From: Strigamia acuminata
Taxonomy: Eukaryota; Arthropoda; Chilopoda; Geophilomorpha; Linotaeniidae
Assembly: GCA_949358305.1 (NCBI GenBank)
Contig: OX442316.1
Location: 3,224,001 to 3,288,000, forward strand
Length of the DNA stretch: 64,000 nucleotides
Direction: 5' to 3'
A program made the translations under genes and the position numbers. Position 1 is the stretch's first letter; each line of letters begins with the position of its first letter. Of this stretch, positions 38,626-61,570 are shown piece after piece. A model generated the notes under the pieces. It saw nothing but the letters and a program-made list of their open reading frames with translations. It had not been told where the DNA came from and searched no databases.

Positions 38626-39162
38626 AAGTGGTGGAGATTGCGGTTTTCTTTTTAGACCCATTAATTGGTTTGATAAAAGTAGTGAAAAGTGAAAATTTAC
38701 AGTAAAAATCAGCCAGTTTTGTGTAAAAATTGAATAATTAGAGCTAAAACCCCGTAAAAACTCAGTTAAAAATAAGAAATTCTTATAAAATTTAGGAATA
38801 GTGCAGATTAATTTGCATATTAGATAGAAATAAGAGTGAATCATAGAGTGACTCAGAGTTTGAAGACAGTATAGTGATTGAATATTTAATTGAGTTGCAT
38901 TGAATTAAATAATATTTTGGATTTAATTATTAAAGTTGTTTAATATTGTTGAATATTGAATTTTGCAGGAAAATTTATTTTGATAATAATATACTTAATA
39001 AAGTTTAATAAATTTAATTTTTTTTTACAGGAAATTGATAAATTAGTGATAATTTATATAGATTCTGTTGTTGACTAATAATAATAATTGTTTATTTTCC
39101 AGAATTTGGATAATTGTGAAACATAAAAATGAGAATATTTTTCAGGATAAGGATTGTGAATG
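38626..39162 (+). other. Element 3 leader, first part
   Basis: AT-rich noncoding leader beginning AAGTGGTGGAGATTGCGG, which should contain the primer-binding site; I could not match it to a specific tRNA. It is cut at 39162 by element 2 and resumes at 52034. Confidence 0.6.
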
Positions 39163-39982
39163 TGTGGTGACCCAGTTGGATAAGTGTCCCCCCAGGGCGG
39201 AAGCTTGTCCTCTGAGTCACTGTGATTGAAGAGTCGTTCCCCCCCGAGTTGGCTCCACCTCCCCATGGCAGGTGTGTGCCCCGAGGGGGAGGAAGCGGCT
39301 GATGGTCAGCCCCCATTGGTTGATCGCCGGCCCTTCACCCCACTGCATAAAAGGCTGTGTTTCCCGCCTAAAGTCAGAACTTACACAAACGACACCAAGA
39401 ACACAGCAACTACCTCACCGTCAGGCCAACTTCAACTACAAGTTAGGATTGATCGAGGATCGCTGAGTAAAGTGCAAACTGTAACTCTCACGAAGTCACT
39501 TGCGAGCTATTCCTGCGAAAGCACGAGAATAGCCCTTGTGAAATCACCCAGAATAATCGCCCAGACGATTATTCGCCGAAGTAAGTGTCCGAGTGCTTTG
39601 TAGGGAACCCCAAAGTTCCTAGACGAGGCCTCTGCGACGCTAAACAAACCCTAGACAACAGGCACGGATAGAAGACTCGAAAGAGCATTCCACCGCGTCC
39701 GTGAAGACGAATCCGTGACGAATTGACGACAACTCGAGACGCCGCCTTTGTTCCGCCGACCACGCGGAATCGACGACGCCATCTTGAGAAATCCTTTGTT
39801 CGACGCTGACCACGTCGACTCTAGAATTATTACTGAGTGTATTTTAAAGGCATAAAGCCTGGTGAATAAATTACCTGTTTATTTACATACATTTGGTATT
39901 CATTTGGGTATTTACATAATTGATCACAGGTAAAGTATTACACGTTAGCGCTATTTAAACCTATACCAAGTAGGACGCGACA
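39163..39982 (+). repeat. Element 2 left LTR
   Basis: 820 bp. A weak TATA-like GCATAAAAGG lies near 39345, and an AATAAA (GTGAATAAATTACC) near 39864. Confidence 0.95.
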
Positions 39983-40076
39983 CGTGGGGGTCTGTCCGGG
40001 ATTTAGAAATAAATCTCAAATCTGAACTTGTGATCTCTCAATAAGATAACCCAAATCGTAGAATTACCGAAAGAAA
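39983..40076 (+). promoter_or_regulatory. Element 2 leader with tRNA-Pro-like primer-binding site
   Basis: After a 2-nt gap, TGGGGGTCTGTCCGGGAT begins at 39985. It matches the tRNA-Pro-type site (TGGGGGCTCGTCCGGGAT, recalled from retrovirus literature) except for three adjacent bases. gag starts at 40077. Confidence 0.65.
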
Positions 40077-43000: not shown

Positions 43001-43217
43001 ATTCCCGACGCCCTTCGTCCCGAAAAAACCGGGATTCACTCCCACAGGGGATAAAAGTAACATCAAATGTTACAGCTGTGGAGAATACGGCCACTACTCA
43101 GATAAATGTGAGAAAACCGTCAAAGAAAAGGACATCATGCAAACCATGATGAAAATGATGATGGAGTTAAGAACTGATCTGGCAAAAAACTTCCAAGCGC
43201 AGGCGTCGCCGAAATAA
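40077..43217 (+). CDS. gag: Element 2 Gag polyprotein (1046 aa)
   Basis: ATG at 40077. Same organisation as in element 1: a basic N terminus, a long Glu/Arg-rich coiled coil (about residues 230-420), and a low-complexity Ser/Pro/Asp region. The capsid-like domain has TRFDGSWKAGDRFLDEVM and AREWYQGLKNPTWDDF. A zinc knuckle CYSCGEYGHYSDKC lies near the C terminus. FDGSW-x2-G-x2-FLDEVM is shared with element 1 Gag, which confirms close relationship. It ends at TAA 43215-43217 downstream of the slippery site. Confidence 0.92.
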   Translation: MSDKDEQSTSETEQRMPEKGKRTSDYHLRSDGPVPEMSAKAKARANKRRAKAQKEEQAASLAALDGPERERVPLNMQPFEDTDPEAIENREEIRDVSPGRVSILMTEETNEAPKITVTVGTNPSPPTAQTSVEQTPRKNDGGTPITPRVTASPAVVSFEVSHLIRLTRQAAQLKAMIDIPVGTSVWESITLLTDAICAAQAPTPVARPAAETPMPQVTPSDTGGFAPDPNRALHQSREKAREEARQEATNRQRRLSAERRELWKEEEEREQRERRTTERTEKLVQKMREEREAKIRKEWNATVEGRHREAQEYEDQFQALVAQRKAEKLQMLREEAILQHQKWEEQHRERLREEEARKEKEQFLKEKEEWDRVRWTEEYKAKKQAIIDEQKRWEAENWEKETEKFQKEYEQGVSGRKKREENPKRKSEPPSGSDTDTGEDAAKPAKTAKRGKSQKRDGSVPKTKDRHPSKRSETGAAIDALLEKKNANKNRERPESEENRWHSFCENNDGGEPPPSEGSKQKKAGGETPPRGPRFHPQGDPSEPSDSSDDDHPSRPSTGRSQEGSDGHRSNRPNASDRSSRSSNPRSEEGNFQDSSGRHYTMSELGRALLNSFRREGIDLGHPGDEHNRAGERVKRKYGVRNEPSSEATGNIRWQHYIQTRFDGSWKAGDRFLDEVMRIKKATKATVADMLTHGLVELTTGSAREWYQGLKNPTWDDFLVRFDLRYGETPDEISNKLRGLRQAPGETLADYDARAKLLFARAPYEINPAGFTMIFYGGLSAHSQRILLDMRAPRTGDYQDVSNYLLTNTLEIEQRYYATLPPEEADAHEKRLQTSAERHKTSEKLMRPSEYLSGIMSLTEASFGRMLTPKAGSILPANPIAAPKKAPAATAMQVTSTDSTQMEKVEETTPLATAKEEEPASSDEEALNEHLENLSTGCDDQGPYLHHAHRALAITQFRAHVQATKARGALGGKRRFPTPFVPKKPGFTPTGDKSNIKCYSCGEYGHYSDKCEKTVKEKDIMQTMMKMMMELRTDLAKNFQAQASPK

Positions 43218-43235
43218 ATTCAGCTTCGTCTGCGC
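43184..43235 (+). promoter_or_regulatory. -1 ribosomal frameshift signal, element 2 gag/pol
   Basis: A AAA AAC at 43184-43190 in gag phase (GCA AAA AAC), then a 6-nt spacer. A 9-bp stem pairs GCGCAGGCG (43197-43205) with CGTCTGCGC (43227-43235), including one G-U pair. The -1 frame is open from here through pol. Slippery site and spacer match element 1 exactly while stem sequences differ. Confidence 0.8.
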
Positions 43236-46200
43236 CAGCCGCGGAAATTAAAAAGAAGAAATATCACACTGGACCCGCAGGTCATGCCTTGGCAGAGGCA
43301 CAGATCAAAGACCGCATACAGATCGTTCCGAAGAAGGAGGAAAAAGTGACGTTAACGAGTATGCAAGTGAGAACGAAACCGGAGGTCGACATGGATTGGA
43401 CGGACCTTCCGTTCAATCTGGAGGTTGAGCCCCAGACATTACGCGTATTTCACTGCAATGTCACGAAAGCACATTGCGAAACTCTGTGTATGCTGCCAGT
43501 GGAGATAGAAAACCAAAAATTGTTCGGTCTACTGGATTCAGGAGCGGATCGTTCATTCATATCCGAAGATATAGTAAAAGACTTGGATATTGGAAAGAAG
43601 GTGGCACAAGTGAACGCGAACGTAGAATTGCTCACCGCCAACGGCTACGTCAAGCCGAAGGGCGTAGTTCGCATCATGATCGACTGGACGGGGGGGAACC
43701 TGTCCCACCCCTTCATAGTCTTGCCATCCCACGACAAAGTATTCCTCCTAGGGATGGACATCATGGCGAAACTGAAAATTCAGCCAAACCCGATAACCCG
43801 TTCATGGAACTGGATAAGTCCCGAGGGAGAACGGTCAGTCCCCGTAGTTCCCCAAAAATTACTGGACGAAGCCAAGGACAAAGAGGAATACGGAAGAGGA
43901 TTGCGAAAATTCGTCCAAGATTACGATTTCGCAGCCTTCACTCTGGAATTACAGAGGAGTAACGTCGTGGACACCCTGGTCGGGGAGGCAGCACTGCGTG
44001 TTAACGAGGCATCGCTACTAAGGCGAGTGCTTCGAAAGCATGAAAGAATTCTGACCAAGACACCTGGTCGAACGACGGAAGCAACACACGAAATAGTCTT
44101 AACCACAGACAAGCCGATTCGAGTGCCTTACAAGGGGATGAACCCCCAGAAAAGAGACATCGTGACGCAAATGTGCCAAGACATGCTCGACAAGGGCATA
44201 GTAACGCAAGCCCTGGGCGAATACGCCATGCGGATCGTCCTGGTGATGCGTCCAGGCTCGGAACCTCGACTATGCATTGATTATCGCCCCCTGAACGCGA
44301 TAACGGTTATAGACCCGATTCAGATGCCGTCTATAGACTCGATCCTCCGGGAACTGAGCCCGTTCAAGTGGGTAACCACCATGGACCTGTCAAAGGGGTA
44401 TTGGCAAGTGGAGCTAAAACCCGAAGACAAACTGAAAACGGCTTTCTACTCCCCGATAGGAAGACTAATGTTCAACGTGATGCCGTTCGGGCTTGTAAAC
44501 GCCCCGAGCACGTTCCAGAAACTGATCGAAAGCGTGTTGGGAGATATGCTGCACGACTTCGTGTGGGCGTATCTCGACGACATCATAATAACGTCGGACA
44601 CATTCGAAGAACATATAGACCACATCGATAGAGTGGTCTCTCGCCTAGCCAAGGCAGGACTCCACATCCATCCAGGGAAGAGCAAGTTTTGCAGGAAAGA
44701 GCTTGCCTTCCTAGGATATCGAATAGGAGTCGAGGGAATCGCGATTGACCCCGAAAAAGTCAAAGCAATAAACGGATTCCCCGCCCCCGAAGATATAAAA
44801 GGTGTCCAGAGATTCATGGGCATGGTCAATTTCTTCGGCCGACTACTCTCTGGTCTGGCTGAAGTGGCCGCGCCTATAACGGATCTCTTACGAACGGATA
44901 AAGAGTTTGAGTGGACGGTCCAGTGCGAGGCCGCATTTAGCACTATCAAGCAAATGCTGGCTGACGTCGAAAAGATGCCATTGCCGGACCTAAACCGACC
45001 GTTCGTGTTGCACACCGACGCGAGTAAAATCGGACTGGGTGCAGCCCTTCTGCAGACCCACGTGTACAACGGAATCTCGCAAGAAGTACCCTGTATGTTT
45101 ATAAGCAGAAAAATACAGGGCGCGGAGAAAAATTATACGGCAACGGAACTAGAATGCCTAGCCGTAATTTGGGCAGTTCGGAAATTTCGCGACTATCTGG
45201 AGTACACGAACTTCGAGGTTCAGACAGATCACCAGGCACTAAGCTGGTTGATGAAGCTCAAGGAACCCTCCGGCCGACTCGCACGATGGCAACTGGAGTT
45301 AATGGCGTGCGATATAACAATTACGTACCGCCCCGGGAAGTACAATCATGTGGCCGACGCCCTCTCGAGAGCCCCAGCCTCTGACCCCCAGGGACCAGAC
45401 GACGACGGCGAGGACGACACCCACCTCTTGTACTGCCCGACTCCACGGAGAATATGGCGTTTGCGAAAGGCGAACGAGCTACCAGTGATGGAGCCTGAAG
45501 ATAGAACGTTTTGTGGTTTTTGGACTCGAACATACCAGCCAGCTGGGACAAACAATTCAACATCCGAAATTCAATCTCCGCCCCCCGGAGAAACCCACAA
45601 AACACTACTACGCGCCTTCACAGCAAAAATTGAAGAAAAAACACAATACGCTCCACCCACGAGACGTGAGTTCGTCGAACACCAGGCAGCAGACACAAAA
45701 TGTCAAATTATAACGCAATATTTGCTGAACGGCGAATTTCCGGAAGGGATGACAAACCCACACCGCCGGAAACAGTTCGTCAAAGAAGCAACAAGCTACC
45801 TCATAGATGATGAACTCCTGGTAAAATACCACCCGACGTTTCAAGATGACCTCAGCGGAGCGGGAAACTCGGTTAAAGTGGTCGTGCCGGCATCGCTGCA
45901 CACCCGACTGTTGTGGCTGATGCACGGACACCCGCTCGCCAGCCATTCTGGCGTGGCGAGGACCCTTTATCGAGTAAAACAACTTTTCTTCTGGCCGGGC
46001 GCGCGGCAAAAGATAACGAAATTTATCCGACACTGCCCCCGGTGCCAAGCGTGCAGACCGCGAGATAAAGTGGCCAGAAACGCCATGTCTCTCGGACCCT
46101 ACGCACCGTTTGACTGCTTAAGCATAGACTTGATGGGCCCCAAGCCCACAACGGGAAACAAGAACATGTATATTCTCGTAATTATGGACGTGGCCACCCG

Positions 46201-47320
46201 ATGGCCGGAGCTGTACGCCCTCGCGAAGCCCTCGGCTGAAAACATAGTCGAGTGCCTTTACGACGTGGCAATGCGATTTGGGTTTCCCAGAAAACTCATT
46301 TCGGATAACGGCCCCCAATTCCGATCGAGAATATATAAGGACTTCTGTAGAAAATTTAAAATGGATGCATCAAACACCTCCACGTATAATCCTCAGACAA
46401 ACCCAGTCGAGAGATTAAATAAAGACATAAAATATGCGCTGACAGTATTCACCGATATTCACAATCGATGGGACGAATACCTGCGAGAAATCGCTTTCAG
46501 CATTCGCTCAACCGTGTCAAGAACACGCGAATTCTCACCGGCGTACCTCAACTTCGCCCGCGAATTAAGGATGCCATGGGACCCACGCGTTGCCGAAGCT
46601 GTTAACGTATTAGACCCATCGAGCCCACACGAGTACGTGTGCCGGTTGGAACAGACTATATCCGACACATACCAGCATATGATGGCGCATATTTTCAACA
46701 TGAGAGAAAGAATCGCAGATAAAGAAGGCGATCTCGCTTTCGCGAACTTTAAAGTGAATGATCTAGTGTGGAAGGAGGCACACACGTTGTCCAATGCAGC
46801 GAGGGGCATCGCCGCAGGTTTAGCCGACAAGAGGGACGGTCCCTATGTAATTGTGGCCGAACACGGCGGCAACGCATACCAACTACGCCGCTTAGAGGAC
46901 AACAAAAATTTTCAGTCGATACATGGCCGAGATTTAAGGCCATATCTGCCAGAGTTTCCCCAAGAAATCTGGCTGGAAGGTCAGACACACAGCGGCCAAG
47001 GGGGCACCGTGGTCGACACGTTCCAAAAAACAAATGAAGCTGAAAATATAGCGGAGGACGAGGATGAATTCTTCGACGCCGAATCTCCGGCCGACGAGGC
47101 TCCAGCACAGCCGGAGCAAGCAATTTCGGAGAGGGAGGAAGCAGAAGAAAGTACTTCTGAAATGGAAAATAAAAAAATTAGTAATGAGAAAAATGCCAAC
47201 ACATCGGAGATGAACGAGCAAGTAGAGTCACGATCTACGAGCACGTCGAAAATCAACCTTCGACCACGACGAAGCAATAATCCGTTCATTCGGGACGGCA
47301 AAGTCGTGGGGAAGAACTAA
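43191..47320 (+). CDS. pol: Element 2 Pol polyprotein: protease, RT, RNase H, integrase
   Basis: Reached by -1 shift; the first ATG in the frame is at 43289. Protease LLDSGADRS (D about residue 83 from that Met), RT with YLDD near 428-431, RNase H (HTDASKIGLG, ATELECLAVIWA), and integrase zinc finger HGHPLASHSG ... HCPRCQAC. The core motifs are SIDLMGP, SDNGPQF and NPVERLN, with 34 residues between the last D and E as in element 1. The acidic tail ends at TAA 47318-47320. The frame is complete and the catalytic motifs are intact. Confidence 0.95.
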
Positions 47321-47700
47321 AAATAAAAGAAAATGTGATAACATGGAGCGGAGGCCTTGTAAAATAAAAAGATTTACTTACGAGAGCTGCTGCACATGTT
47401 GAGACGCGAAAAATTAGCTAAATCCAAACTTCGCAACGAATTGTCGCAGTCACCACTAACAGACGAGAAGTTATGACGTAGCGGGCGACCACGTGACAAC
47501 GAAACCACGCGGTCGACCCCGTAGCGTCATTGCCAGCACGGCGGATCTCGCAAAATACGAGACGCGTTCGAGACCCACAATTCTCAGCGTCGATAGGCCC
47601 AGTTTCCGACTGTTTTTAACACGACGAGACGTGTTTTTGCTTCTCCCCCAAAGAGAAAGACAAAGACCTCTCAAACAAAACTTCATTTTCCTAAATTGAA

Positions 47701-50700
47701 ATGGCCGATCGACGCAACCCACGATTAGAGCCGAGCGCATCGTCGAGAGACGAGAGCGACGGCCTAATCGTAAATGCAGAAGAAGATGAGAATTGGGACG
47801 AACAACCGCCGTTGCAGGTAAATTAGTGTGATTTCCCCAGAGAAATCACATAATTCTTTGAATCTGTTGCATCCAACCCAGATTGGAGCGTGACTTGTGA
47901 CTGATATATTTCTTTCTGTTTTATTGTTGATTTAAGGCTGGCTAAAAACCCGAGAGTGGACCCAGATTCACCTCGGAGTCAAGGCCGCCAAAAAACTAGA
48001 ACAAAGGAAGTGTTCGCGGAATGGCGTCGTGGCAAACCAAAACCAAAACTAAAGGTTTTCCTTCTTTTAAATTTAAACATCGTAATAAATTAAAATACGA
48101 TTAGAGTTAAAATAAAAAAGTTTAACGTAAGAAATTAAAATTTAACGATCGGTTTTGCCTGCGACCCCTTCCAAAAAAGCGGATCACCTGAGTTCAAAAG
48201 TAGTGTTGGATCAGCGCTACGACGGCGGAGATCATCGCAGAACTGCGAAACAAGAAAATAAGACCGACGGCCGCAACAAAAGAAAGGAGTTGCTGCCACC
48301 GTCGATCTTGAGCATATTTCTGATCCCCATCGTTAACTGGGATTTATTATATTAATCTTGTGATCTAAAATTATTCAGGTCGACCCGCTAGAATCGTGGG
48401 ACGCCCTGCCTCCGACGGCGTCAACCGCCAACAACATCTTTCGCGGAGCCCTGCCGATTTACCTGCGGCAGGCCTATCCTGCAGAGACCAGCGCCTGGAA
48501 AATCCGATTGATGTATTCCAGGACCCTCGAGGAAAAATTCGAGCGATCAAAAACGCTGGTCGAGTGCATGACGAAGGAGATGAGGGAGCGAGTGGGGCCG
48601 CGGATCCCACCCGATGCGGATCCGCCGAGCCCCGTTTACTCCGGGTACCTGGAAGAGGCTTACCCAGGCACGGTGGCCGAGCTGCACACCTCCCATAGGT
48701 GGAGCGAGGCCCCGACCTTGGCAGCCCGCCAGAGAATAGTGGACGACGAGATCAAACGCTTAAAGCGCACCGAGACTCACGGAGTAACCCGAGTTCTCGA
48801 GAGAAACGGTTTCTCCCCCGAAGAAATCCGTAGATGGCTTCGCGACATCGAAGAAGATCATCTGACACCCAGATGGATACCGCCGGCGAATTTTACGGCC
48901 ACGCAGTCTGAGATGTGGCAGTTATACCACGCTGGTATCCTGGGAAGTCGCCGCCATCACAGAAGATCGAAGCGTCCGGCGGAGTCCGCCCCACGCGGAC
49001 CCGCACGAAGAAGACAGGCCGTCTCCCCAATAGAGGCCGGCCCGTCAACGAGCCGCGACTACCGCAGCCGCTCGAGCAGCTCCAGTTCCCGAACTCGAGT
49101 TGTCGTGCGCTCGGAGTGTCGCCGAGTAGTAACGCTCGAGCCTGCCTCGCCAGACGACGCGCGGGCTGAGCGAACAGTCGAATCTTCCGCCCACTGGGCT
49201 GCGAGGACCGAGACACACCAAGATCGAGGAAAGAAAAGATCCTCGTTGTTCATGGCGATTACCACACAGTCGTCAGATCAATCCTCGTCGCGACGAACCG
49301 TCTCATCACACCAGAGACCGAATTCTCCGACGGACGTCCCCCAGAGGACGGCCCAACGAAGATCCGTCGCAGCCAGCACCCGGAGGAATCGAAAGCGCAA
49401 AGTACGTCAGAAGTTGCGAGCACAATCCCTGATAGCTAAGGGATTAGAGAAGGAGCGAGAGATGGCCGCCGCGAAACGGTCCGAACCCCAGAGTCTCGGA
49501 CCCACGGCTGGACCGTCCAGGCGCCAAGCAGAGATTGATTTGGGAGAGTTGACGGAAGAGCAAATGTCCCCAGATGAGTCGGACAAAGATGGGCCGGTTA
49601 CAAAACAGGATCTGGCCGTAGCATTGAAGAACGCCTTCCGAGGATACGCGGCCAACCGGCCGTCGGGCTCAACACCGGCTGTGCCCACCGCGCTTGTGCC
49701 CCCACAAGTGCAATCGCGATGGCCGCCACTCCTCGAGGGTACAAACCCAGCCGTGACCGCTTGGACCCCTCCCCGGATGATTCCGGTGGGGGATCCAGCT
49801 CCGAAGCGGGTCAGATACGATAATCTACCCGGGCTGGGCCGTCCACCGTCACCCCCAACGCCACGAGTGTGTCGACCTTATCGCAACGCCGAATGGTACG
49901 CCCAGCGAGAGATGGACGCTCGATGCCGGCGTGAAGCGGCCTATCCCCCACTCAGCGAGCTACAAGAATATCTGGCCGAATACGAGAACCCCGCGATTGC
50001 CGAGTTGGCCATACGACAGGCCGACGCCGCCCAAACCCACCACATCAATTGGGCGATCGAACAGATGCGGACGCTGTCACAACAATTCAGTGGCAATCCG
50101 GACCGCGCTCACCCCTGCCATCGGAGCGGTTTGAATTTGGCAGTGACGAACGTCATGGCCCAGCTGCTGTCCCTGGGCGTCTTCTTGGACAGTCGGCAGG
50201 CTATGGCGGCCTGGACAATCGTCGACCGTGAGGGAGTTCACCTTCCTCGGGCGTTGTACCAGGTATGGGCCGGATGGACTCCTGAGCCCGCCTCGCTGCG
50301 CTTCGACCTGGCCAGGAATACGGAGAACCCAGGCCTGCAGTTTTCGAAGATGCGTTCGTTGGCATTCCGCTACCGGAACCCCGGAGTCCACCCTTCCTTG
50401 TTGCGAACAATTCGGGAGGCTCCGGAGATACCGGGAACGACAGCGAGCCTCCCACAGGCCATCGTGACCGCCCCCCCAGAGGCGGCGGTCCAACCATACA
50501 TACCGACCCCAAAGCCGGTATTCCCAAAGGAGAAGCGGTATGCGAATCGACCCAAATTGATTCCGAAGCGCTCCAACCGAGGACCGCGAACTCCTCCGCT
50601 GCCCTCTCCTTCGCCACCAGCGGCAGAGCTGGCCGCTCTTACAACAGAGCCGGCTACGCCACCGTTGGAGAGTCCAATGGAGATTCCACTTCCTCCATCG

Positions 50701-51165
50701 CCTCCGCCGCCCCCAGCAGCGCAGCTTTATTTGAGGCTGGGAGTGGAATACCCCTTCCTTCAGATGTCGGAGTTCACGCGACAACGCATCATTGACTCCG
50801 ATGATCACGGCGAGTCGGTCCTCAAATGGCTGAACAGAGAGGCCCGATCTACCATGGACGCCGTCTTCCATCGCCGAATCTTGCGAGCCCACCGGAAACC
50901 CGGATCGAGCGCCGAGTCGCGAAGGATCCGGCTCGTTCCCGACCGATTCCCGGCATCCACCCGGATTTGGATCCACGAACGTACGGGACTGATTGGCGAG
51001 CCGGTCGGCGGTCACCCGCAGTACTTCATCAGCGAGCGACAGAATCCTGCGGATCTGACAACCTCTCTGCCCCCGGATTTACCACCGCCGCCCCCGGCAG
51101 TGCCACCAGTGATCCTCCGCCCATGCAGAGGAGTGCTGCCGGCTCTTCGCAGAGGAGAGCGATAA
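47701..51165 (+). CDS. Element 2 spliced ORF3 (about 967 aa, unknown function)
   Basis: Exon 1 is 47701-47817 (MADRRNPRLEPSASSRDES...) with donor CAG/GTAAAT. Exon 2 is 48379-51165 after acceptor TTATTCAG; the join is in phase 0. The first about 230 residues resemble element 1 ORF3: SWDALPPT, NNIFRG, SAW, and TQSEMWQLYHAGIL against TDIAQVWLHLNVG. Arg/Ser-rich and Pro-rich regions follow, then a second globular-looking segment (QLLSLGVFLDSRQAMAAWTI) and a Pro-rich end. There is no membrane segment or signal peptide, so it is not a typical envelope. I do not recognise any enzyme motif. Confidence 0.65.
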
Positions 51166-51196
51166 AATTGAGATCGCTCCGATCCGAGATCGAAGC

Positions 51197-51209
51197 TGGG
51201 GGAGGGACG
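51197..51209 (+). promoter_or_regulatory. Element 2 polypurine tract
   Basis: GGGGGAGGGA followed by CG just before the right LTR. Confidence 0.7.
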
Positions 51210-52029
51210 TGTGGTGACCCAGTTGGATAAGTGTCCCCCCAGGGCGGATGCTTGTCCTCTGAGTCACTGTGATTGAAGAGTCGTTCCCCCCCGAGTTGGC
51301 TCCACCTCCCCATGGCAGGTGTGTGCCCCGAGGGGGAGGAAGCGGCTGATGGTCAGCCCCCATTGGTTGATCGCCGGCCCTTCACCCCACTGCATAAAAG
51401 GCTGTGTTTCCCGCCTAAAGTCAGAACTTACACAAACGACACCAAGAACACAGCAACTACCTCACCGTCAGGCCAACTTCAACTACAAGTTAGGATTGAT
51501 CGAGGATCGCTGAGTAAAGTGCAAACTGTAACTCTCACGAAGTCACTTGCGAGCTATTCCTGCGAAAGCACGAGAATAGCCCTTGTGAAATCACCCAGAA
51601 TAATCGCCCAGACGATTATTCGCCGAAGTAAGTGTCCGAGTGCTTTGTAGGGAACCCCAAAGTTCCTAGACGAGGCCTCTGCGACGCTAAACAAACCCTA
51701 GACAACAGGCACGGATAGAAGACTCGAAAGAGCATTCCACCGCGTCCGTGAAGACGAATCCGTGACGAATTGACGACAACTCGAGACGCCGCCTTTGTTC
51801 CGCCGACCACGCGGAATCGACGACGCCATCTTGAGAAATCCTTTGTTCGACGCTGACCACGTCGACTCTAGAATTATTACTGAGTGTATTTTAAAGGCAT
51901 AAAGCCTGGTGAATAAATTACCTGTTTATTTACATACATTTGGTATTCATTTGGGTATTTACATAATTGATCACAGGTAAAGTATTACACGTTAGCGCTA
52001 TTTAAACCTATACCAAGTAGGACGCGACA
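51210..52029 (+). repeat. Element 2 right LTR
   Basis: 820 bp, same ends as the left LTR, followed by the AATG duplication. Confidence 0.95.
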
Positions 52030-52033
52030 AATG

Positions 52034-52607
52034 TTGAGTGTTTATTTAATGATAAAACATTGATTGATAACGATTCCATTAGAGGCAATGTGTTTTTTCT
52101 GGTTTATGTTGAGGTTTATGTTAATTTTGATGATTAATAGTATAAAGATTTATTTCAGAATAAGTGATTGGTGAAGTTTGGTTATAGTGAATGTGTGGAA
52201 GTGCATTATAGAGTAGTGGAAATAAAAATTATAGTGCATTTCAAGGCTTAATAGTGGATAAACCAGTGAAGCTTACACAGACACAAACGGACGGTTTACT
52301 AGATTTACAGAACCAAGAATTACAAAGATTAGTGGATAACCCTAATATAACCAAAACTAGGAAGAAATCAAAATCACATTCGGGATCGGAAGTAAAGGAG
52401 GAAGATCCAGTTGTTGAAATAAAGGAGGAAGATCAATTTCAAGATTCATTATCGCAACAAGAACTTGATTTGTCCTCACCTTTGAAATTAATAAAACCAA
52501 AAGAGTTGAAATCGATTTTTGAGTTACTAACACCAATAAAGACTATACAAACACCTTTATTAAAAACTAATACACAAGGATCCACATCAAAAGGAATAGT
52601 ATCCAAG
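52034..52607 (+). other. Element 3 leader, second part, with open frame upstream of gag ATG
   Basis: Resumes the element 3 leader. The gag frame is already open from 52212 but lacks an ATG until 52608. The intervening translation (VKLTQTQTDGLLDLQNQ) looks protein-like, so a spliced or non-AUG start is possible. Confidence 0.5.
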
Positions 52608-53612
52608 ATGGCGGACCCAACGGCAGTACTAACTGATTTATTTAAGAGTTTGATGATACAAAAGCGACCTGTCGTTTGTTTTGATACGGAAAAAGGGAAT
52701 ATTGATCAGTGGCTCGTGGCTTACGAAGCAACAATAGGCACAGATGATGAGAGAGTTAAACAATTGCCATTAGCGTTAAAAACTGATGGTCTGGCGTGGT
52801 ATGTGGAATTGCTCAAGAAAAATCCAACATGGACTTGGACAGAGTGGAAACCACAACTAGAAGATAAATTTCGTAGAGGCCAGGAAAATGTTTTAAATAC
52901 TCTTCATTTTATGTCGCATACAGAAGGAACAGCAGATGCCTATATGAAAAAAGTTTTGGCTGAGTGTGCTTTTGTAAGGCCGGAGCTCACTGAACATCAA
53001 AAGATTAATTATGTTTATCAAGGTATGAAACCCGATATGAAGAAGATGATAATTACAGTATTCCCATCCACACTGGCAGAGATGGAACAGAGGGTGAAGT
53101 TGTACGAGACCCACAAGGTTAAGGATCCAGCGGATTTACTGCTCTCACTTTTCAAAAAGGTGGTGGATGAAAAGGTAACTCCAGCGACATCAGGTAAACT
53201 GAGTGGAACTGTGGAAACCTCATTAACCCACGCCGAGCTTTTAGCTGAAAATGCAATGTTAAGGCAACGGTTATTAGCTCTTGAGACGGTGGAACCGACG
53301 TCAGAAGAACCCATCTTGATAGGAAGCCAGTGGTATACACCAATGAAGCGAGGAGGTCAGAATTTTCAGTATAAGAATTTTCAGAGAGGTGGTAATAGAG
53401 GTGGTAGTCAAAATTATAATACTAACAATAATAACAATAATAGTAATAATAGTAATACTCGATCTTGTGGATGCTATCATCACTTTACTTGCGAGTTTTA
53501 TAATCCACCAAGGTACCAACAGGATAGAGGTGGTACTGCTGGAAGACCTAGAAGACGTAGAAGAGAAGGTCCTAGCACTACAGTCAACACCCAACAACAG
53601 ACGGAAAACTGA
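52608..53612 (+). CDS. gag: Element 3 Gag (334 aa from the first ATG)
   Basis: ATG at 52608 in good context (AAGATGGCG). It begins MADPTAVLTDLFKSLMIQKR and has a compact gypsy-type capsid (FDTEKGNIDQWLVAYE, FRRGQENVLNTL, VYQGMKPDMKK). The C-terminal nucleocapsid part has no CCHC knuckle. Instead it has Arg/Gly-rich and poly-Asn tracts and an Arg run, which may do the RNA binding. It differs in length and sequence from the Gags of elements 1 and 2, so element 3 belongs to another lineage. Confidence 0.85.
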   Translation: MADPTAVLTDLFKSLMIQKRPVVCFDTEKGNIDQWLVAYEATIGTDDERVKQLPLALKTDGLAWYVELLKKNPTWTWTEWKPQLEDKFRRGQENVLNTLHFMSHTEGTADAYMKKVLAECAFVRPELTEHQKINYVYQGMKPDMKKMIITVFPSTLAEMEQRVKLYETHKVKDPADLLLSLFKKVVDEKVTPATSGKLSGTVETSLTHAELLAENAMLRQRLLALETVEPTSEEPILIGSQWYTPMKRGGQNFQYKNFQRGGNRGGSQNYNTNNNNNNSNNSNTRSCGCYHHFTCEFYNPPRYQQDRGGTAGRPRRRRREGPSTTVNTQQQTEN

Positions 53613-53698
53613 GAAGTCGGCCACAGAGAGATTGTCACCATCCGAATAGAAGTAAGAAGAAAAAGAAGAAAAGATGGAAAAAGGACAACATTACAATA

Positions 53699-56600
53699 AT
53701 GGATATAAAAATTTCGGAATCATTGTTGGAAATCCCGGTAATTGTAAAGAATTTGGAAATAAAGGCAGTCATGGACACTGGAGCTAAGAAGAACATTTTG
53801 AGTGAAGAGTTAGCAGAAATATTACAGTTGGATTATCAACCTACACCTAACGTTAGATTACGAGGAATAGGAACTGATTTAATAACTCCAGTGGGTAAAA
53901 CAAATTTGAACATTCAAATAGGACAATTGCAGTATTCAGTAGAAGTATTGATAGTTAGAAGTTTCAATTACCAACTTTTATTGGGGGATCCATTTATGAC
54001 TTTTGCGAGGTGTGTTGTTGATTACGATTTACAAAAAATCTTTGTGGGCCGAAAAAGTGGATTAGAAGCAGTTTTCCCGATGAATAAGACGTATGTGGAC
54101 CAGAATTACGTAGCAAGAGTGACAAAAGGCATAGCAATTCCACCAATGCATGAATGTGCAGTTCCAGTTAACCTAAGCACAGCTTTAACGAAAGAAATGT
54201 TTTTGGAACCTTTAGGAAATGTAATTGATAGGTTTGGTATTATGTGTTGTAAGACGTTAACAAAGTTTGAGAACGGCAAAGGCGTAATACGAGTGGCGAA
54301 TCCATCTAAGTCCATTTTTCTGCAAGAGAAGTCTGCGATTGGTAAGGCACATTATATTATTGATATTGGGTTGATGGATGAAAAACAAGCAAATTGTTTT
54401 GACTCTAACTCCTCAAGTTCTAAGGTTGTTGAGTTGTCGAATGAAAAACAAGCAAATTGCTTTGATTTTGACTCCGCAATAGCCGAAGGTAAGATGACCA
54501 AGAACCAACAGCAACAAATGAAGCAGTTACTTCAGAAAAATCAGGACAGATTTGCCATGACAGATAAAGATTTAGGAAGAGTAACCAACTTTAGTCATAA
54601 AATTGATACAGGTGATCATGAACCTATTCACTTGCAGCCGTACAGACGTTCAATTGCAGAAAAAGAAGTAGAAGCTGAGGAAACCAGAAAATTGTTAGAA
54701 CAAGGAGTCATAAGGGAATCAGAAAGTCCCTGGAGCGCGCCAGTTTTACTCATCAAGAAAAGAGACGGTAAATGGAGGTTTTGTGTTGATTGGAGAAGGT
54801 TGAACGCAATTACAAAGAAAATGGTGTACCCACTGCCAAGAATAGATGACACGTTAGATCAACTAGCAGGGGCCCAGTTTTTCTCGATGATGGATTTAAT
54901 CCAAGGATACCATCAAGTTGAAATAAATGAACAAGACCGAGAGAAGACAGCGTTCACCACTTCAACCGGACACTATGAATTTAATGTCCTTGGAATGGGG
55001 TTATGTAACAGCCCAGCAGCGTTTCAAAAATTGATGAATAAAGTATTGGGCAACCTCCTTGGAAAAGTCTGTATAGCCTATCTTGACGACCTTATAATTT
55101 TTTCTAAAACATTTGAACAACATTTACAAGATCTGGACTCAGTCTTTGAAAAACTGCGAATTGCGAATTTAAAGGTAAAGCTAAGTAAATGCACGTTCGG
55201 GACGGATACCATCCGGTATCTCGGACATGTGATTGATTCAGAAGGCATTTCACCAGATCCACGAAATCTCGAGTCTGTAGCAAAGTTTCCAATTCCATTA
55301 AATGTGAAGCAGTTAAGGGGATTTTTGGGTTTGTGCTCATATTATAGAAAATTCATTTTAGGATTTGCTGATATTTCCAAACCCTTGGTCAACCTTACGA
55401 AGAAAGACGAGAAATTCGACTGGGGACCGCCTCATGAAGAAGCATTTAAACAACTAAGAACAGCTTTGGTAACAGTGCCAGTTTTGGCTCATCCTAATTT
55501 CGCACAGCCTTTCATCATATCGACGGATGCAAGCGCTTACGGTTTGGGAGCCATTTTGAAGCAAAAGCTTAACAACCAAGAGCATGTGATTTGTTATGCT
55601 AGTAGGTTATTGAGCAATGCCGAACAGAACTATAACGCGACAGAAAGAGAATGTCTGGCCATATTGTTTGGCATACAGAAATTTCGCCCTTATTTGTATG
55701 GAAAGAAGTTTACCATCATCACGGACCACTCAGCACTTCAATGGCTGAAAAGCGTCAAAAATCCAAATGGTAGGTTAGCACGATGGAGTCTGCAGTTGGT
55801 TGACTATGATTATGAAGTACAGCATAAGTCAGGCAAGAAACATACAGATGCCGATGCGTTAAGTAGGATTCCTGAGGACATTAGTGAAGAAGAAGTAATT
55901 ATTCCTTCATTATTGCTCGAAAATCTCGATTTACCTGCAGAGCAGCGTAAAGATCAGAAGATTATGGAACTCATCACATCACTGCAGACAATAGAGCAAC
56001 TTCCGCGCAAAAGAAGACGTCCGCTACAGCAGTACGTACTTCAAGGCGATATTTTGTTTAAGAAGAAAATTAATTCCTTGAACACGGAAGAATTACTGTA
56101 TATTCCACAGCATTTGAGAAAAGATGTTTTAGTAGAAATGCATGATGGTCTTACAGGCGCTCATTTAGGCCTGAGTAGAACTTGGAAGAAAATTAGAACA
56201 CGTTTCTTCTGGCCAAGGATTTATAGGGACGTAAGGAATTACGTACTCTCATGTCCGAAGTGTGCAAGTGCAAAAACCATGACAACACCGCCAAAAGGAT
56301 TGATGCAGCCGTGGTCGACAGTGTCTCGACCATTCGAACGAGTAGCCATAGACACGTTAGGCAGTTTTCCAACATCTGACACAGGAAACAAGTACGTTTT
56401 CATTATTACGGATTATTTATCACGCACTGCAATAGCTAGAGCAGCACCAGCTTGCACAGCTATTGAAGCAGCGAATGCCCTTGTTTATGAAGTCATGCTG
56501 AAAGAAGGAAGCCCACGAGAGATTCTGAGTGATAAGGGAACAGAATATAGAAATGAAATGATTAAGGAAATATCTGCATTGTTTAGGTCCCTTCACAAAT

Positions 56601-57514
56601 CTACTTCCGGATACCATCCAAGAACAAACGGTCTTACGGAAAGATTTAATGCAACAATAGCTAAGATGTTGCAGAGCTATGTAAATAAAGATCATACCGA
56701 TTGGGACGCATTTTTGCCATTTCTTCTCTTCTCTTATAACACTGGAGTCCATGAAACAACAGGTTACACTCCGTATTATTTATTACGAGGTTATGAAGCA
56801 GATCTCAACGTGGATGTCAACTTAAATCTTCCTCGTAAGGAATTCACTTTGCGTACTTCCAGATTTATCAGGGAGGCAAGGAGAATTGCCAATGAAAGAA
56901 TACAAGAACAAGGTTTGAAAAGCAAGAAAAGGTTTGATTTGGACAGAGTACATGTGGAATTCGATCCAGGAGAGCTAGTTTATTTGAAAACACCAAATAG
57001 AAAGGTTGGTTTGAGTGAAAAGCTCTTGCCACAATTCTCTGGGCCATATGAGATCGTACGACGAACAGCGCCGAATGACTACGAAATTCGAAGTTCATCA
57101 GGCAAAAAGATGGACATTGTGAACATAGAGCGACTGAAACCGTACAAAATGAGAGAAGAACTTTCAGAAGATATTATGAGGCCTTTAACAGCTAAAAAGG
57201 TTACATTTGCTGAGGATTTGAAGGAAATAGACAGCGGAAAGGAAATTATCGCGAAAAACAACGTAAATTCGTCAAACAAACCTATTTCTGCAGCTACGGA
57301 ACGTTTCATTGACGATGACGATCAAATATCGTTGCGAGGCTTATTCGAGGATGAACTTCCGGCGAAAAATGAGGAAAATCAACTTCCGAAACCGTCACCA
57401 GGCGTCGCAAGTGCGGTCGACAACGACGCGCATGCGCGACCACCTGAGGTTGGCAGTTTCTGGTCACGCCGCCTACGTAAACAGGCACGGCGCGATTACA
57501 CTGCATTCTACTGA
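53699..57514 (+). CDS. pol: Element 3 Pol polyprotein: protease, RT, RNase H, integrase (1271 aa)
   Basis: ATG at 53699, in the -1 frame relative to gag. The frame is open from 53576, overlapping the gag end by 37 nt. There is no canonical slippery heptamer in the overlap. Protease MDTGAKKNI (D26), RT with YLDD at 461-464, RNase H STDASAYGLG and TERECLAI, integrase zinc finger HDGLTGAHLG ... CPKC. The core has D885, D945 and E981 (AIDTLG, SDKGTEY, LTERFN), a normal DD35E. All catalytic residues are present. Confidence 0.95.
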   Translation: MDIKISESLLEIPVIVKNLEIKAVMDTGAKKNILSEELAEILQLDYQPTPNVRLRGIGTDLITPVGKTNLNIQIGQLQYSVEVLIVRSFNYQLLLGDPFMTFARCVVDYDLQKIFVGRKSGLEAVFPMNKTYVDQNYVARVTKGIAIPPMHECAVPVNLSTALTKEMFLEPLGNVIDRFGIMCCKTLTKFENGKGVIRVANPSKSIFLQEKSAIGKAHYIIDIGLMDEKQANCFDSNSSSSKVVELSNEKQANCFDFDSAIAEGKMTKNQQQQMKQLLQKNQDRFAMTDKDLGRVTNFSHKIDTGDHEPIHLQPYRRSIAEKEVEAEETRKLLEQGVIRESESPWSAPVLLIKKRDGKWRFCVDWRRLNAITKKMVYPLPRIDDTLDQLAGAQFFSMMDLIQGYHQVEINEQDREKTAFTTSTGHYEFNVLGMGLCNSPAAFQKLMNKVLGNLLGKVCIAYLDDLIIFSKTFEQHLQDLDSVFEKLRIANLKVKLSKCTFGTDTIRYLGHVIDSEGISPDPRNLESVAKFPIPLNVKQLRGFLGLCSYYRKFILGFADISKPLVNLTKKDEKFDWGPPHEEAFKQLRTALVTVPVLAHPNFAQPFIISTDASAYGLGAILKQKLNNQEHVICYASRLLSNAEQNYNATERECLAILFGIQKFRPYLYGKKFTIITDHSALQWLKSVKNPNGRLARWSLQLVDYDYEVQHKSGKKHTDADALSRIPEDISEEEVIIPSLLLENLDLPAEQRKDQKIMELITSLQTIEQLPRKRRRPLQQYVLQGDILFKKKINSLNTEELLYIPQHLRKDVLVEMHDGLTGAHLGLSRTWKKIRTRFFWPRIYRDVRNYVLSCPKCASAKTMTTPPKGLMQPWSTVSRPFERVAIDTLGSFPTSDTGNKYVFIITDYLSRTAIARAAPACTAIEAANALVYEVMLKEGSPREILSDKGTEYRNEMIKEISALFRSLHKSTSGYHPRTNGLTERFNATIAKMLQSYVNKDHTDWDAFLPFLLFSYNTGVHETTGYTPYYLLRGYEADLNVDVNLNLPRKEFTLRTSRFIREARRIANERIQEQGLKSKKRFDLDRVHVEFDPGELVYLKTPNRKVGLSEKLLPQFSGPYEIVRRTAPNDYEIRSSSGKKMDIVNIERLKPYKMREELSEDIMRPLTAKKVTFAEDLKEIDSGKEIIAKNNVNSSNKPISAATERFIDDDDQISLRGLFEDELPAKNEENQLPKPSPGVASAVDNDAHARPPEVGSFWSRRLRKQARRDYTAFY

Positions 57515-57894
57515 ACTTCTTCAAAGGGAACACAAGCATATTGTTGTGACCGGAGAAAATTTTCAATTGAACTTAACAACGTGATATTTAGAAAGCTCGT
57601 GTGTGACAGTACGTATTATTAAACAATTGAAATTGAAGATTAAATAGAGCGGAAATCTGGAGAGTTTGAAAACGAAATTAATGCGAATGATTTTCAAGAA
57701 GCTGCATTGAAATTATTAACTTGGACATTTTTCACATTGAATAATTAATTAGTTCATAGAGAATAATTTGAATTTTACATAGTAAATTGGAAGGATAGTT
57801 GCAATAGACGAATTTGATAGGAATTAAATTGGATTATGTTTGATTTTGGTCAACCGTATATTAATTTATTTTGTTTTTTTTTTATGAAGCACGA
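57515..57894 (+). other. Spacer between pol and ORF3 in element 3
   Basis: AT-rich, no coding capacity. It ends with a pyrimidine-rich tract and ATGAAG at 57884-57889, a plausible splice acceptor just before the ORF3 ATG. Confidence 0.5.
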
Positions 57895-59265
57895 ATGGAG
57901 GAGATGACTAACAAATTTAAGCACGTGAGGATCCACGAGTCGGAGGACGAAGATGAAGTAATGTCGACATGTTCGGGAGCGTCAACTCGACTCGCTGATT
58001 TATTCACCTGTACGTCTCGCCTGGAGCAGATTGAAGAGGGAGCGACGGCGTCATGCTCAAAGGAAACTCCTAAACTGACGGACTTTGTCAAGTTTGAACG
58101 ACCATTTTCGGATGGTAAGGAACAAAGACAGGCACCGAAGGTTCACGAGCGCCCTTTGACGCCAGCGGAAAAGCATAAGATTGAGAAGCGAAAGGCGAGT
58201 GAGAAGGTGAAGAGACAGAAGATGAAGGAGGAGAAACAGGAATTTTCGGAACAGGGAATTAAGGAAATGAAGAAGCAGAACGCCAAAACCATCAAGCGAA
58301 ATGAAAAGCGTCTACGCGAACTTAGGCTAGAGCAAAGGAACATGGCGATTGCAGTGGACAAGCTGAACTTGAAAGGGACAGATGGCAAGGTGATATATGA
58401 AGCTTGGTTTCAAGCGGCAGACAGGCTGCTGTTACACGAAGCTGTCATCCGTAAGAACATACAAAAGGCGAAAGCCTTAGCCAACAGGACATCATATGGA
58501 GATCCTTATTTTGACTTGCCGCCTGTTTTGTACTCATATAAAGTTCAGTTGGACGCCGACAAACAACTAGTGGCATTGCAACTCGCGCGTGACTACGCTT
58601 GGAAACCGATCAATGACGCAGCGGTCACTATGGACGGGACACCACCGATGATTATTAAAAATCATGAGATGGCAGCTCTCGGTAGCTTAGAGCCGGGGAA
58701 AGGCTCTTGGGTTCATGCGAGTGTTATTAACTCGTATTTGGAATTACTTGCAGGATATTATAAACACGTGTGTTATTTTACTGTAGAGCTTGTTGCCTTG
58801 ATGTTGGCCCGCGAGTCATTTCTTGAGGCCATAAATTTGATTAAACAGGATCGGCCGGGTAATGCGAGGCCTATTTGGCTGCTTCCAATTCCGATGGAGG
58901 AGCATTGGCAGTTTCTGATAGTTGACTGGACCAAATTCCCAACGGACATTGTTTTGTACGACCCATCGGGTCCATTGGACACTAAAAGCATTCAATGGCA
59001 GACCATCCACAACTGCTTTACAGGTGCGGGGATTTATTTCCCGCACAGACTGAGGCAGTGGGACCCGCCGCGAGTTCAGCAGCTTGACCCAGATTCGTGT
59101 GGGCCAGCGGTGCTGTACTTTGCACGGCGCTATCTGGTGGACCGGGACTACATGCGCCATGCGCATCCGATTCATCTACGCCACCGGATTCTTTACGAGT
59201 TACATCAGAAGACTTTGGAGCCATTCGAAGAAGAAAAAGAGAAGCTAAAAGCTCCTCTTCCATGA
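57895..59265 (+). CDS. Element 3 ORF3: Ulp1/SENP-like (C48) cysteine protease, 456 aa
   Basis: ATG at 57895; the frame continues upstream to 57871 without another ATG. The N-terminal half is charged, with a coiled-coil region rich in Lys, Glu and Arg (about residues 85-160). The C-terminal half carries the C48 signature. His337 lies in EEHWQFLIVDW, Asp356 in VLYDPSG, and Gln396 and Cys402 in QLDPDSCGPAVL. Spacings (H to D 19, D to C 46, Q to C 6) fit Ulp1/SENP and related proteases. Known family members cleave SUMO or related modifiers; adenovirus-type proteases share the fold. It lies between pol and the 3' LTR, in the env position, and is fully open, so it is part of the element. Substrate and role are unknown. 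Confidence 0.85.
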   Translation: MEEMTNKFKHVRIHESEDEDEVMSTCSGASTRLADLFTCTSRLEQIEEGATASCSKETPKLTDFVKFERPFSDGKEQRQAPKVHERPLTPAEKHKIEKRKASEKVKRQKMKEEKQEFSEQGIKEMKKQNAKTIKRNEKRLRELRLEQRNMAIAVDKLNLKGTDGKVIYEAWFQAADRLLLHEAVIRKNIQKAKALANRTSYGDPYFDLPPVLYSYKVQLDADKQLVALQLARDYAWKPINDAAVTMDGTPPMIIKNHEMAALGSLEPGKGSWVHASVINSYLELLAGYYKHVCYFTVELVALMLARESFLEAINLIKQDRPGNARPIWLLPIPMEEHWQFLIVDWTKFPTDIVLYDPSGPLDTKSIQWQTIHNCFTGAGIYFPHRLRQWDPPRVQQLDPDSCGPAVLYFARRYLVDRDYMRHAHPIHLRHRILYELHQKTLEPFEEEKEKLKAPLP

Positions 59266-59609
59266 ACTTTTGATTTTAAATACTTTGTTTTTTTTTTTAT
59301 TTTAATTGAGATATAAATCTCACAATTTTTTTTTGATATAGAAAATGTTAGAAAACCCGAAGAAAAAAAAGTAATATAAAAATGTAGAAAAATCCAAAAA
59401 GTGTTATTTTGAATAGTAAAGTGTTGAATTTCATTGTAATTTTTTTTAGTGAAATGTGGAATTTTGTTTTACTTTGTAAAAGATATGATTAACACTGGGG
59501 TGGGACTCATATATTTGATTATTTTTAAGGTATGATTGGCATATAAAATAATTGGCTTGAATTCTAAAGTACTGTGGTTTTTGGAGACCAAAAAATTTAA
59601 AGAGGGGGC
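59266..59609 (+). promoter_or_regulatory. Element 3 3' untranslated region and polypurine tract
   Basis: AT-rich and noncoding. It ends with TTTAAAGAGGGGGC at the border of the right LTR, the purine tract AAAGAGGGGG. Confidence 0.75.
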
Positions 59610-60102
59610 TGTCACGCGGTTGAGTTGCGTCGTCTGCCGACCAGCTCAAACCAGCGATAGAATTAAAGAAGTTGTCAAAATCTATCACTAGCCAGCGTAC
59701 GTGATGGTGACATCACGGGCTGGTCAATCTGGATTAACTCAGGGGGTGACTCTAGTATAAAAGAGCCACTTTGGCTCTTAGAGCTCAGTCCATCCCGGGC
59801 TTCTAAACAGTTAGCACCAGCCAGCAAATGGCGTGGTGTGATTGTTTCCCTCCAAATTGAATCAAGGTGTTAATCATATCTTAGAGTATTTATTAGGTTT
59901 AAGTTTAGATTTAGTTTACATTTTGTATTTATGATTTAAGTGTTTTGATTTGAAGAATAAAGACACTGTATTGTTTTCAATCTTAAACTCTGGCTCTATT
60001 TCATTTACCTCACTCTTAGTAACTGAGCTTAACTCAGTTTAGTAAACAGTTAAAATAAGTAATAAGTTACGTGGTCACTATTGGCCATTTGGCCACGTAA
60101 CA
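59610..60102 (+). repeat. Element 3 right LTR
   Basis: 493 bp, same as the left LTR, followed by the ATAC duplication at 60103-60106. Confidence 0.95.
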
Positions 60103-61055
60103 ATACGGATGAAGTTGCTGCGGCAATCGGAGAAAATTGTCCGCTGATGACACATCTCGAAATTCTTGTTAGTAATTTTACTGACGTCGGGCTCCATTCA
60201 CTAAGCCGTTGTATCAAATTGGAGTTTTTGATTCTTGAATTAACTCGTGCTACGGCTAAAGGACATTTGTTCCTTCTCAACAACCTACCACTTTTAAAAG
60301 TGTTTAAACATCGCAGATGGAACAAGTTATTGATTGAGTTAGCAGAACAGTCGAATAGATCCAAAATATCGCGCACATATTCCATCGAACATATCCGAGT
60401 GAGGCGTAGCTCGGAGCTTCCGTTGGTGAGGACCTTTTTTCCCAATTTAACAAGCTTAGAGTTCTACAGTGACGAAACTTTCAATTTTAATATTTTCATG
60501 TGGCCGCAACGATTGACGAATCTCCTTCTGATGGGATTTGGACTGGTCAATATTAGACTTATAGATCGCGCTTGTCCAATGTTAGAGAAATTAGCATTAA
60601 TTGATTGTTCAATTTCGACTGAAAGTGATGATATTGTTACGAGTGCTCCATTGAGAAACCTTCGTCAAATATTTTTAAGCTGTAACGAATTACAAATGAG
60701 TGAACAACAAATGAAAACATTATTGGTACAATCTAAATGTTTAGAAAATTTGTGCATTGCGTTAAGGCCAATACTTTCTGACGATTTTCTTTCGCAACTA
60801 ATTGAGTCGAATGCGCTGCAATGTCTAAAAATGTTAGCATTTTCGAATTGCCCCAATATTACTTTCGCTTCAATCGACAAATTGCTGAGAATGCGGAATC
60901 CAATGAATACGTTATACATCTATGATTGTGGCAATTCCATTGTCGATTTAATTGCAAGGTCTATTAAAAGCAGAAACTTGGAAGTGCAGCTTAAAAGGAA
61001 TAGGACCTTTGTTACGGCCTTTTTAGGCCCCTCCACTCAAATCCAATTTTTTTAA
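60103..61055 (+). pseudogene. LRR gene copy L3, right part
   Basis: Continues the frame broken at 38132 (DEVAAAIGENCPLMTHLEIL) through the leucine-rich repeats to LKRNRTFVTAFLGPSTQIQFF and a stop. It aligns with L2 throughout. The host gene was intact before insertion. Confidence 0.8.
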
Positions 61056-61570
61056 AATGCTCAAACTCGAACTAATATGTTAACACTGGAAAAAAAAGCA
61101 TATTTCCAAACATTTCCAAGTTGAAAATTTATATGGAAAAGTTGAATTTACTATGATGCGAAAATTTGTTGGAAATATGTTGGAAATATTTATATATTTC
61201 CAAACTTCTGAAAATGTGTAGTAAATCCTAGAGATGAAAAGTCATATTTTCAATTAGTTGTAAATCTGTTGTTTGAAATGTTGTTTCCAATCAATTTTCT
61301 TTTGGATGGAAATGTATTGTAAACTTCATTTCACAATGATTGTAAAAATAATGTAAAAGCAAGAAAATACCTAAAATTTAAATGTAACATTTAAATATCT
61401 GAAATGTAACAAAAACAAGGGAAAATACAGTCAGGAACAATAAAATTGTATCAAATTTGAAATCAGAAGAGAAAATAATGTATAAAACGGTCCAATTTCG
61501 AACCGACATGGACAATTTGAAATCGGGCCAATCAGGGCGCAGGTACGGAAAAATTCGTGTCGATGAAACG

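What the first reader, a model, noticed from the sequence alone, without database searches (positions are those of the whole stretch)
57895..59265. A gypsy retrotransposon carrying a Ulp1/SENP-like protease in the env position
The ORF is fully open, lies inside two near-identical LTRs with a target duplication, and keeps the H-D-Q-C catalytic set with family-typical spacing. Ulp-like genes are known as cargo of some plant DNA transposons, and polintons carry a related cysteine protease, but I do not know of one as a standard third ORF of a Ty3/gypsy element. It could remove SUMO-like modifiers from Gag or integrase, or counter SUMO-dependent piRNA silencing. Those roles are speculation.
Basis: partly seen in the sequence, partly recalled or inferred. 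Interest (0 to 1): 0.88.

Follow-up and report, generated by a model that had tools for sequence, protein, structure and literature searches.

The report
Gypsy retrotransposon with SUMO-protease-like third ORF
A jumping element in an arthropod-like genome carries, where its virus-like cousins carry an envelope gene, a conserved gene for an enzyme resembling those that strip the small protein tag SUMO from other proteins, which suggests the element edits protein tags in its host cell.

Summary

It is not a one-off capture: at least 127 loci in this 237.5-Mb genome carry ORF3 sequence, in four deep clades; 32 of 40 ORF3 loci read have pol upstream; dN/dS is 0.05-0.15 in 13 of 14 computable pairs.

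Against a strict 'standard ORF': of the 37 closest pol copies only 8 have a listed ORF3. Of the other 29, 13 were read, and 11 keep its last 20-48 codons. So it was lost secondarily and repeatedly, much as insect endogenous retroviruses lose env.

Most likely it is a SUMO-type Gly-Gly protease supplied in trans; target unknown. Activity is inferred. Ulp1 domains are printed for Ginger1, Mutator and NeSL/Utopia elements; I found none for Ty3/gypsy, but seven later literature searches failed.

The parts
38133..60102 (+). Element A, Ty3/gypsy LTR retrotransposon (about 9.1 kb without the nested element B)
   Evidence: identical LTRs, 4-bp TSD, PPT, gag, pol, ORF3; inserted into an LRR-type gene whose reading frame is continuous when the flanks are joined
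38129..38132 (.). target site duplication ATAC, 5' copy
38133..38625 (+). 5' LTR of A, TGTCAC...AACA, 493 bp
   Evidence: 493 of 493 identical to the 3' LTR
38626..38645 (+). probable primer-binding region just after the 5' LTR
   Evidence: read from sequence; not matched to a tRNA
39163..52029 (+). Element B, a different gypsy element nested in A's leader (LTRs 39163-39982 and 51210-52029, TSD AATG)
   Evidence: LTRs 99.9% identical, boundaries and TSD
52254..53612 (+). gag-like ORF of A (frame open from 52212; first ATG in frame is codon 119)
   Evidence: Ty3_capsid Pfam E=0.0024, 17.8 bits, below cut-off 29.1; frame and ATG
53699..57514 (+). pol of A: aspartic protease, RT, RNase H, integrase; frame open from 53576, 37-nt overlap with the end of gag in the -1 frame
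   Evidence: Pfam; frames
57870..57889 (+). T-rich stretch ending in AG, 5 nt before the ORF3 ATG: candidate splice acceptor
   Evidence: 15 of 20 pyrimidines, highest of the 18 AGs listed between 57600 and 57900; no donor-like site scoring 7 of 9 was found in the leader stretches scanned
57895..59265 (+). ORF3: 456-aa SENP/Ulp1-like (C48-type) cysteine protease; residues 1-60 acidic and low-confidence, 61-200 basic helical, about 215-442 protease domain
59599..59609 (+). polypurine tract AAAGAGGGGGC
   Evidence: same layout in clades II-IV
59610..60102 (+). 3' LTR of A
60103..60106 (.). target site duplication ATAC, 3' copy

Best explanation
ORF3 is an ancestral, selectively maintained accessory gene of a gypsy lineage. 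It encodes a cysteine protease of SENP/Ulp1 type with a basic helical N-terminal region. It is probably translated from a separate spliced mRNA, as env is in other gypsy elements. Its most likely activity is cleaving the Gly-Gly end of SUMO (or a SUMO-like modifier) from conjugates. The enzyme works in trans, either on the element's own Gag or integrase or on host SUMO conjugates needed for silencing. Because the benefit can be shared, copies that lose ORF3 can still spread. SHOWN: anatomy, homology, fold match, invariant catalytic residues, purifying selection, secondary loss. INFERRED: activity, SUMO preference, splicing, trans action, target. My odds: SENP-like C48 homologue kept as part of the element 0.95; active deSUMOylase 0.6.
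Against: No activity, expression or substrate data. Pfam C48 score of the window protein is 13.2, cut-off 20.7. Most nearest pol copies lack ORF3 (29 of 37), so it is not needed in cis for spread. No splice donor found. SENP-fold enzymes also act on NEDD8 or ubiquitin, or mature viral proteins. N-terminal residues 1-56 are modelled with pLDDT under 50.
Confidence: 0.6

Rival explanations
1. ORF3 is a maturation protease that cuts Gag or other element proteins, as adenain and the ASFV and pox core proteases do, rather than a deconjugase.
Confidence: 0.2
2. ORF3 is a deubiquitinase or deneddylase, protecting element proteins from proteasomal turnover.
Against: SENP1/2/3/5 and Ulp1 rank above the NEDD8 protease by structure; SENP8 was not among the 17 profile hits.
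Confidence: 0.15
3. ORF3 is a passenger host gene with no role, as in plant transduplication.
For: ORF3-less copies spread well; pol and ORF3 blocks recombine.
Against: Purifying selection across four clades; catalytic residues kept in pol-linked loci while the four rows of the pol-less repeats L065, L067, L070 and L071 have lost the His.
Confidence: 0.05

Closest known systems
Insect endogenous retroviruses / errantiviruses (gypsy/gypsy clade) with env-F
   Same: Ty3/gypsy; third ORF between pol and 3' LTR; repeated secondary loss leaving fragments (PMC12992720, passages)
   Different: ORF3 here is an intracellular-type protease without membrane anchor; the paper argues against env exchange by recombination, whereas here pol and ORF3 blocks show discordant divergence
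Bdelloid LTR retrotransposons with enzymatic ORF3 (GDSL esterase, DEDDy exonuclease)
   Same: captured enzyme in env position, family-specific (PMC5408684, abstract and passages)
   Different: different enzymes; 'Ulp' and 'SUMO' do not occur in that text
NeSL and Utopia non-LTR retrotransposons of nematodes
   Same: retroelement with Ulp1-like cysteine protease (PMC4640811, passages)
   Different: non-LTR; protease is an N-terminal domain of the RT protein, not a separate ORF3
Ginger1 and Mutator-like DNA transposons with Ulp1 domains (e.g. KIU in plants)
   Same: mobile element with Ulp1 domain (PMC2836005 and PMC13317346, passages); MULE-type Ulp1 plus PHD elements also occur in this genome
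   Different: DNA transposons; the ORF3 profile matches the other C48 loci held from this genome only weakly (20 of 29 held; best 1.8e-6, L032, in a set of 120 sequences)
Cellular SENP1/SENP2/Ulp1 SUMO proteases
   Same: fold and catalytic layout
   Different: 12-20% identity in the SENP1/2/5 and Ulp1 rows; unrelated N-terminal region; encoded by a retrotransposon

Membership tests
Ty3/gypsy LTR retrotransposon | paired LTRs with TG..CA ends and target duplication | tested here: met
Ty3/gypsy LTR retrotransposon | pol order protease - RT - RNase H - integrase | tested here: met
   Pfam positions 12-100, 352-512, 601-703, 802-966
Ty3/gypsy LTR retrotransposon | polypurine tract before the 3' LTR | tested here: met
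Ty3/gypsy LTR retrotransposon | Ty3-type capsid in gag | tested here: inconclusive
   E=0.0024, 17.8 bits, under the cut-off 29.1
Ty3/gypsy LTR retrotransposon | primer-binding site complementary to a host tRNA | not tested
   sequence read, no tRNA set compared
C48 (SENP/Ulp1) cysteine peptidase | His-Asp-Cys triad with oxyanion Gln six residues before Cys | tested here: met
   17 of 17; alignment with SENP1
C48 (SENP/Ulp1) cysteine peptidase | sequence relationship to known members | tested here: met
   profile to SENP1 E=2.4e-11; 15 of 17 members match PF02902 at E up to 1, best 1.2e-4; the window protein alone is under Pfam's cut-off
C48 (SENP/Ulp1) cysteine peptidase | SENP fold | tested here: met
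   on a predicted model
C48 (SENP/Ulp1) cysteine peptidase | cleaves SUMO or a related modifier | not testable with these tools
   needs an assay
Errantivirus (env-carrying insect endogenous retrovirus) | third ORF is a fusion glycoprotein with transmembrane anchor | tested here: not met
   highest 19-residue hydropathy 0.69-1.43 in 13 ORF3s; SENP fold instead
Errantivirus (env-carrying insect endogenous retrovirus) | third ORF expressed from a spliced mRNA | tested here: inconclusive
   AG within 8 nt of the ATG in 23 of 28 loci; T-rich acceptor-like site but no donor found
NeSL/Utopia | non-LTR element with protease fused to RT | tested here: not met
   LTRs and separate ORF
Polinton | DNA element with DNA polymerase B and packaging ATPase | tested here: not met
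   Pfam found only retroelement domains in A's gag and pol and a weak C48 match in ORF3

The most novel reading that the evidence does not exclude
A Ty3/gypsy lineage evolved a retrotransposon-encoded deSUMOylase that suppresses SUMO-dependent transcriptional silencing of transposons in the host germline. It acts as a public good, so ORF3-deleted 'cheater' copies amplify on the activity of intact relatives, and ORF3 is exchanged between pol backgrounds as a module.
Probability: 0.25. Interest if true: 0.88.

Novelty: new variant of a known kind. Interest (0 to 1): 0.66.

Why it matters
It would extend Ulp1/SENP domains, printed for DNA transposons and nematode non-LTR elements, to Ty3/gypsy elements as a separate gene in the env position, kept across four deep clades and repeatedly lost. 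Independent uptake of the same enzyme type by unrelated elements points to SUMO as a shared point of conflict or dependence for transposons. The natural set of intact and ORF3-deleted copies with nearly identical pol makes that testable by comparing their expression, silencing marks and spread.

Tried and rejected
Rejected: (1) 'no LTRs near the ORF' - an artefact of searching 48000-64000 only, resolved by the nested element. (2) One-off capture: rejected by copies and clades. (3) 'Standard ORF in every copy': rejected. (4) Envelope glycoprotein. (5) Origin from the genome's other Ulp1 transposons: not supported, but only 20 of 29 C48 matches were held. (6) '35% clade copies carry an internal TAA': the TAA is their terminal stop.

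Led nowhere: the search for homologous proteins with P0001 and with A1 (no hit at E<=0.001 among about 8000 scored candidates each); viral contigs with P0001, pol and A1; genome contigs with A1; phages; Rfam and tRNA scans of the window; SL1 RNA (which also rang in none of the controls). Relatives in other arthropods could not be searched: no such collection. The element B ORF3 search did not complete.

Literature: answered searches are. Of the 17 papers I read passages in 3. Seven searches timed out, and two look-ups of one DOI (112, 122). That SUMO is needed for piRNA-guided silencing in flies, and which residues are catalytic in SENP1, is recalled.

Full report
ANATOMY. One of seven contig ends read is a (TTAGG)n array, an arthropod-type telomere as I recall; the species is unknown. 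Element A spans 38133-60102. Its LTRs (493 bp) are identical, with ATAC duplications, so the insertion is young. It split an LRR-type gene: with one ATAC copy kept, the joined flanks read as one frame that aligns with the paralogue at 34646-36049. A's gag-like frame, pol (PR, RT, RNase H, IN) and ORF3 follow. Pol's open frame overlaps the end of gag by 37 nt in the -1 frame.

HOW COMMON IT IS. Searches with the window ORF3 and with a distant one gave 95 and 90 matches. The first scored only 93 of 681 candidates and the second 89 of 391, so counts are lower bounds. Merged, they are 127 loci on 17 contigs; 88 span at least 1300 bp, of which 78 showed no internal stop in the listings. A tree of 30 rows shows four deep clades: I (L001-L010), II (L014-L027), III (L051-L052), IV (L053-L056, with L065 and L067) (it warns of long branches). 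Contig C13, 10.3 Mb, holds 39 of the 127.

IS IT PART OF THE ELEMENT? Of 40 distinct ORF3-bearing loci read, 32 have pol upstream (26 of 29 among L001-L030, where L011 and L030 are one locus; 6 of 6 among L051-L056, L053 with most of pol missing and gag just before). The eight without: L010, L013, L029 (only 1.5 kb read), L066 (about 2 kb), L065 and L067 (about 6.8 kb), L070 and L071. L065, L070 and L071 are copies of one larger repeat that has lost the catalytic His (Arg instead), as has L067 (Ser). In the other 37 rows the His is present in 35 and deleted in 2 (L026, L029). A polypurine tract with a TGT LTR start follows ORF3 in 9 of 10 loci checked (not found in L016). In clade III eleven LTR pairs, ten about 9.0 kb and one 10.8 kb apart end to end, enclose an ORF3 match.

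SELECTION AND EXCHANGE. Of 22 ORF3 pairs, 14 gave a dS; in 13 dN/dS is 0.05-0.15, and the one exception (0.55) rests on almost identical copies. Eight pairs were saturated. Identity of pol C-terminus and ORF3 correlates (r=0.80, 54 of 55 pairs), but ORF3 is usually much more diverged. L007 and L009 are 95% identical in pol (91% at fourfold sites) and 69% in ORF3 (42% at fourfold sites). The break lies near the end of pol, which points to recombination between backgrounds. ORF3 has GC3 of 0.46-0.54 against 0.26-0.38 in pol in the 12 loci where pol was compared (the thirteenth, L053, has gag there, 0.34).

LOSS. The pol search finally answered: 37 matches, all at least 88% identical, a capped list out of 6493 candidates. 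Eight have a listed ORF3 within 6 kb. I read 13 of the other 29. Eleven keep the end of ORF3: seven start at residue 409, three near 412, one near 437; two (L081, L084) show none. The LTR is seen in 12 of 13. L072 and L073 share the same junction in DNA (window 57703 to 59129). In clade III, L064 keeps only residues 439-455 and its pol is in two frames. So ORF3 is ancestral here and was deleted several times, and the deleted forms spread. That resembles env-F loss in fly endogenous retroviruses (PMC12992720, passages). The 3' end of ORF3 and the stretch to the LTR being kept so often may mark a cis-acting region (inference).

EXPRESSION. In 23 of 28 loci an AG lies within 8 nt before the ORF3 ATG. 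In the window the AG at 57889 follows 15 pyrimidines in 20 bases, the best of 18 AGs listed. The clade IV loci have their T-rich AG further upstream. No donor scoring at least 7 of 9 was found in the leader stretches scanned, which speaks against simple splicing there. Splicing is therefore only likely.

MECHANISM. SENP-type enzymes cut after Gly-Gly of SUMO; the invariant W272 and W338 align with what I recall as the tryptophan clamp. Pol has its own protease, so a deconjugase is likelier than a maturation enzyme. No membrane-like segment was found, so it is not an envelope. ORF3 is kept by selection where present, yet copies without it thrive, which fits an enzyme acting in trans. Targets may be Gag or integrase, or host silencing factors; this is inference.

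NOVELTY. Passages read: Ulp1 in Ginger1 and Mutator (PMC2836005, PMC13317346), in NeSL and Utopia (PMC4640811), other enzymes in rotifer ORF3 (PMC5408684), no Ulp1, OTU or SUMO in a review of accessory domains (PMC6338049), no Ulp in PMC5718144. Searches listed no paper on a Ulp1 ORF in Ty3/gypsy that I recognised, but I read passages in only a few of the papers listed and seven more searches failed, and Repbase is not held. I therefore call it a new variant of a known kind.

Noticed in passing
39163-52029; ORF 48508-51165: Nested gypsy element B has its own long ORF (885 aa) in env position with no Pfam match; the genome search for it did not complete.
   Followed up: partly
13452-26451: A third LTR element, C, with 1232-bp repeats 100% identical, a 1206-aa gag-like ORF and a 1675-aa pol.
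   Followed up: no
about 36842-38132 and 60103-61055; paralogues 31370-32386, 34646-36049: LRR-type gene family; element A interrupts one member.
   Followed up: partly
579-5011: Long tandem array with a 21-bp offset.
   Followed up: no
L036-L041: Six copies of a Mutator-like transposase ORF with Ulp1 (C48) domain and PHD finger (L036 scanned).
   Followed up: partly
L065, L070, L071 (and C91:9221): A repeat of at least 8 kb, 98-99% alike, holds an open 409-codon ORF3 relative without pol and with Arg in place of the catalytic His; C91 was not read.
   Followed up: partly
C1:47990092-48098935 (L066 is one): Six ORF3 fragments in about 109 kb, three of them with the same score and about 31-32 kb apart.
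   Followed up: partly
contig C13 of G000: 39 of 127 ORF3 loci lie on this 10.3-Mb contig, about 4% of the genome.
   Followed up: no
52212-53612: The gag-like frame has no ATG before codon 119 of the listed ORF; the leader holds several T-rich CAG sites, so gag may start on an upstream exon or at a non-ATG codon.
   Followed up: no
L072-L080, L082, L083, L064: ORF3-deleted copies keep the last 17-48 codons of ORF3; a cis-acting function of that stretch is possible.
   Followed up: partly
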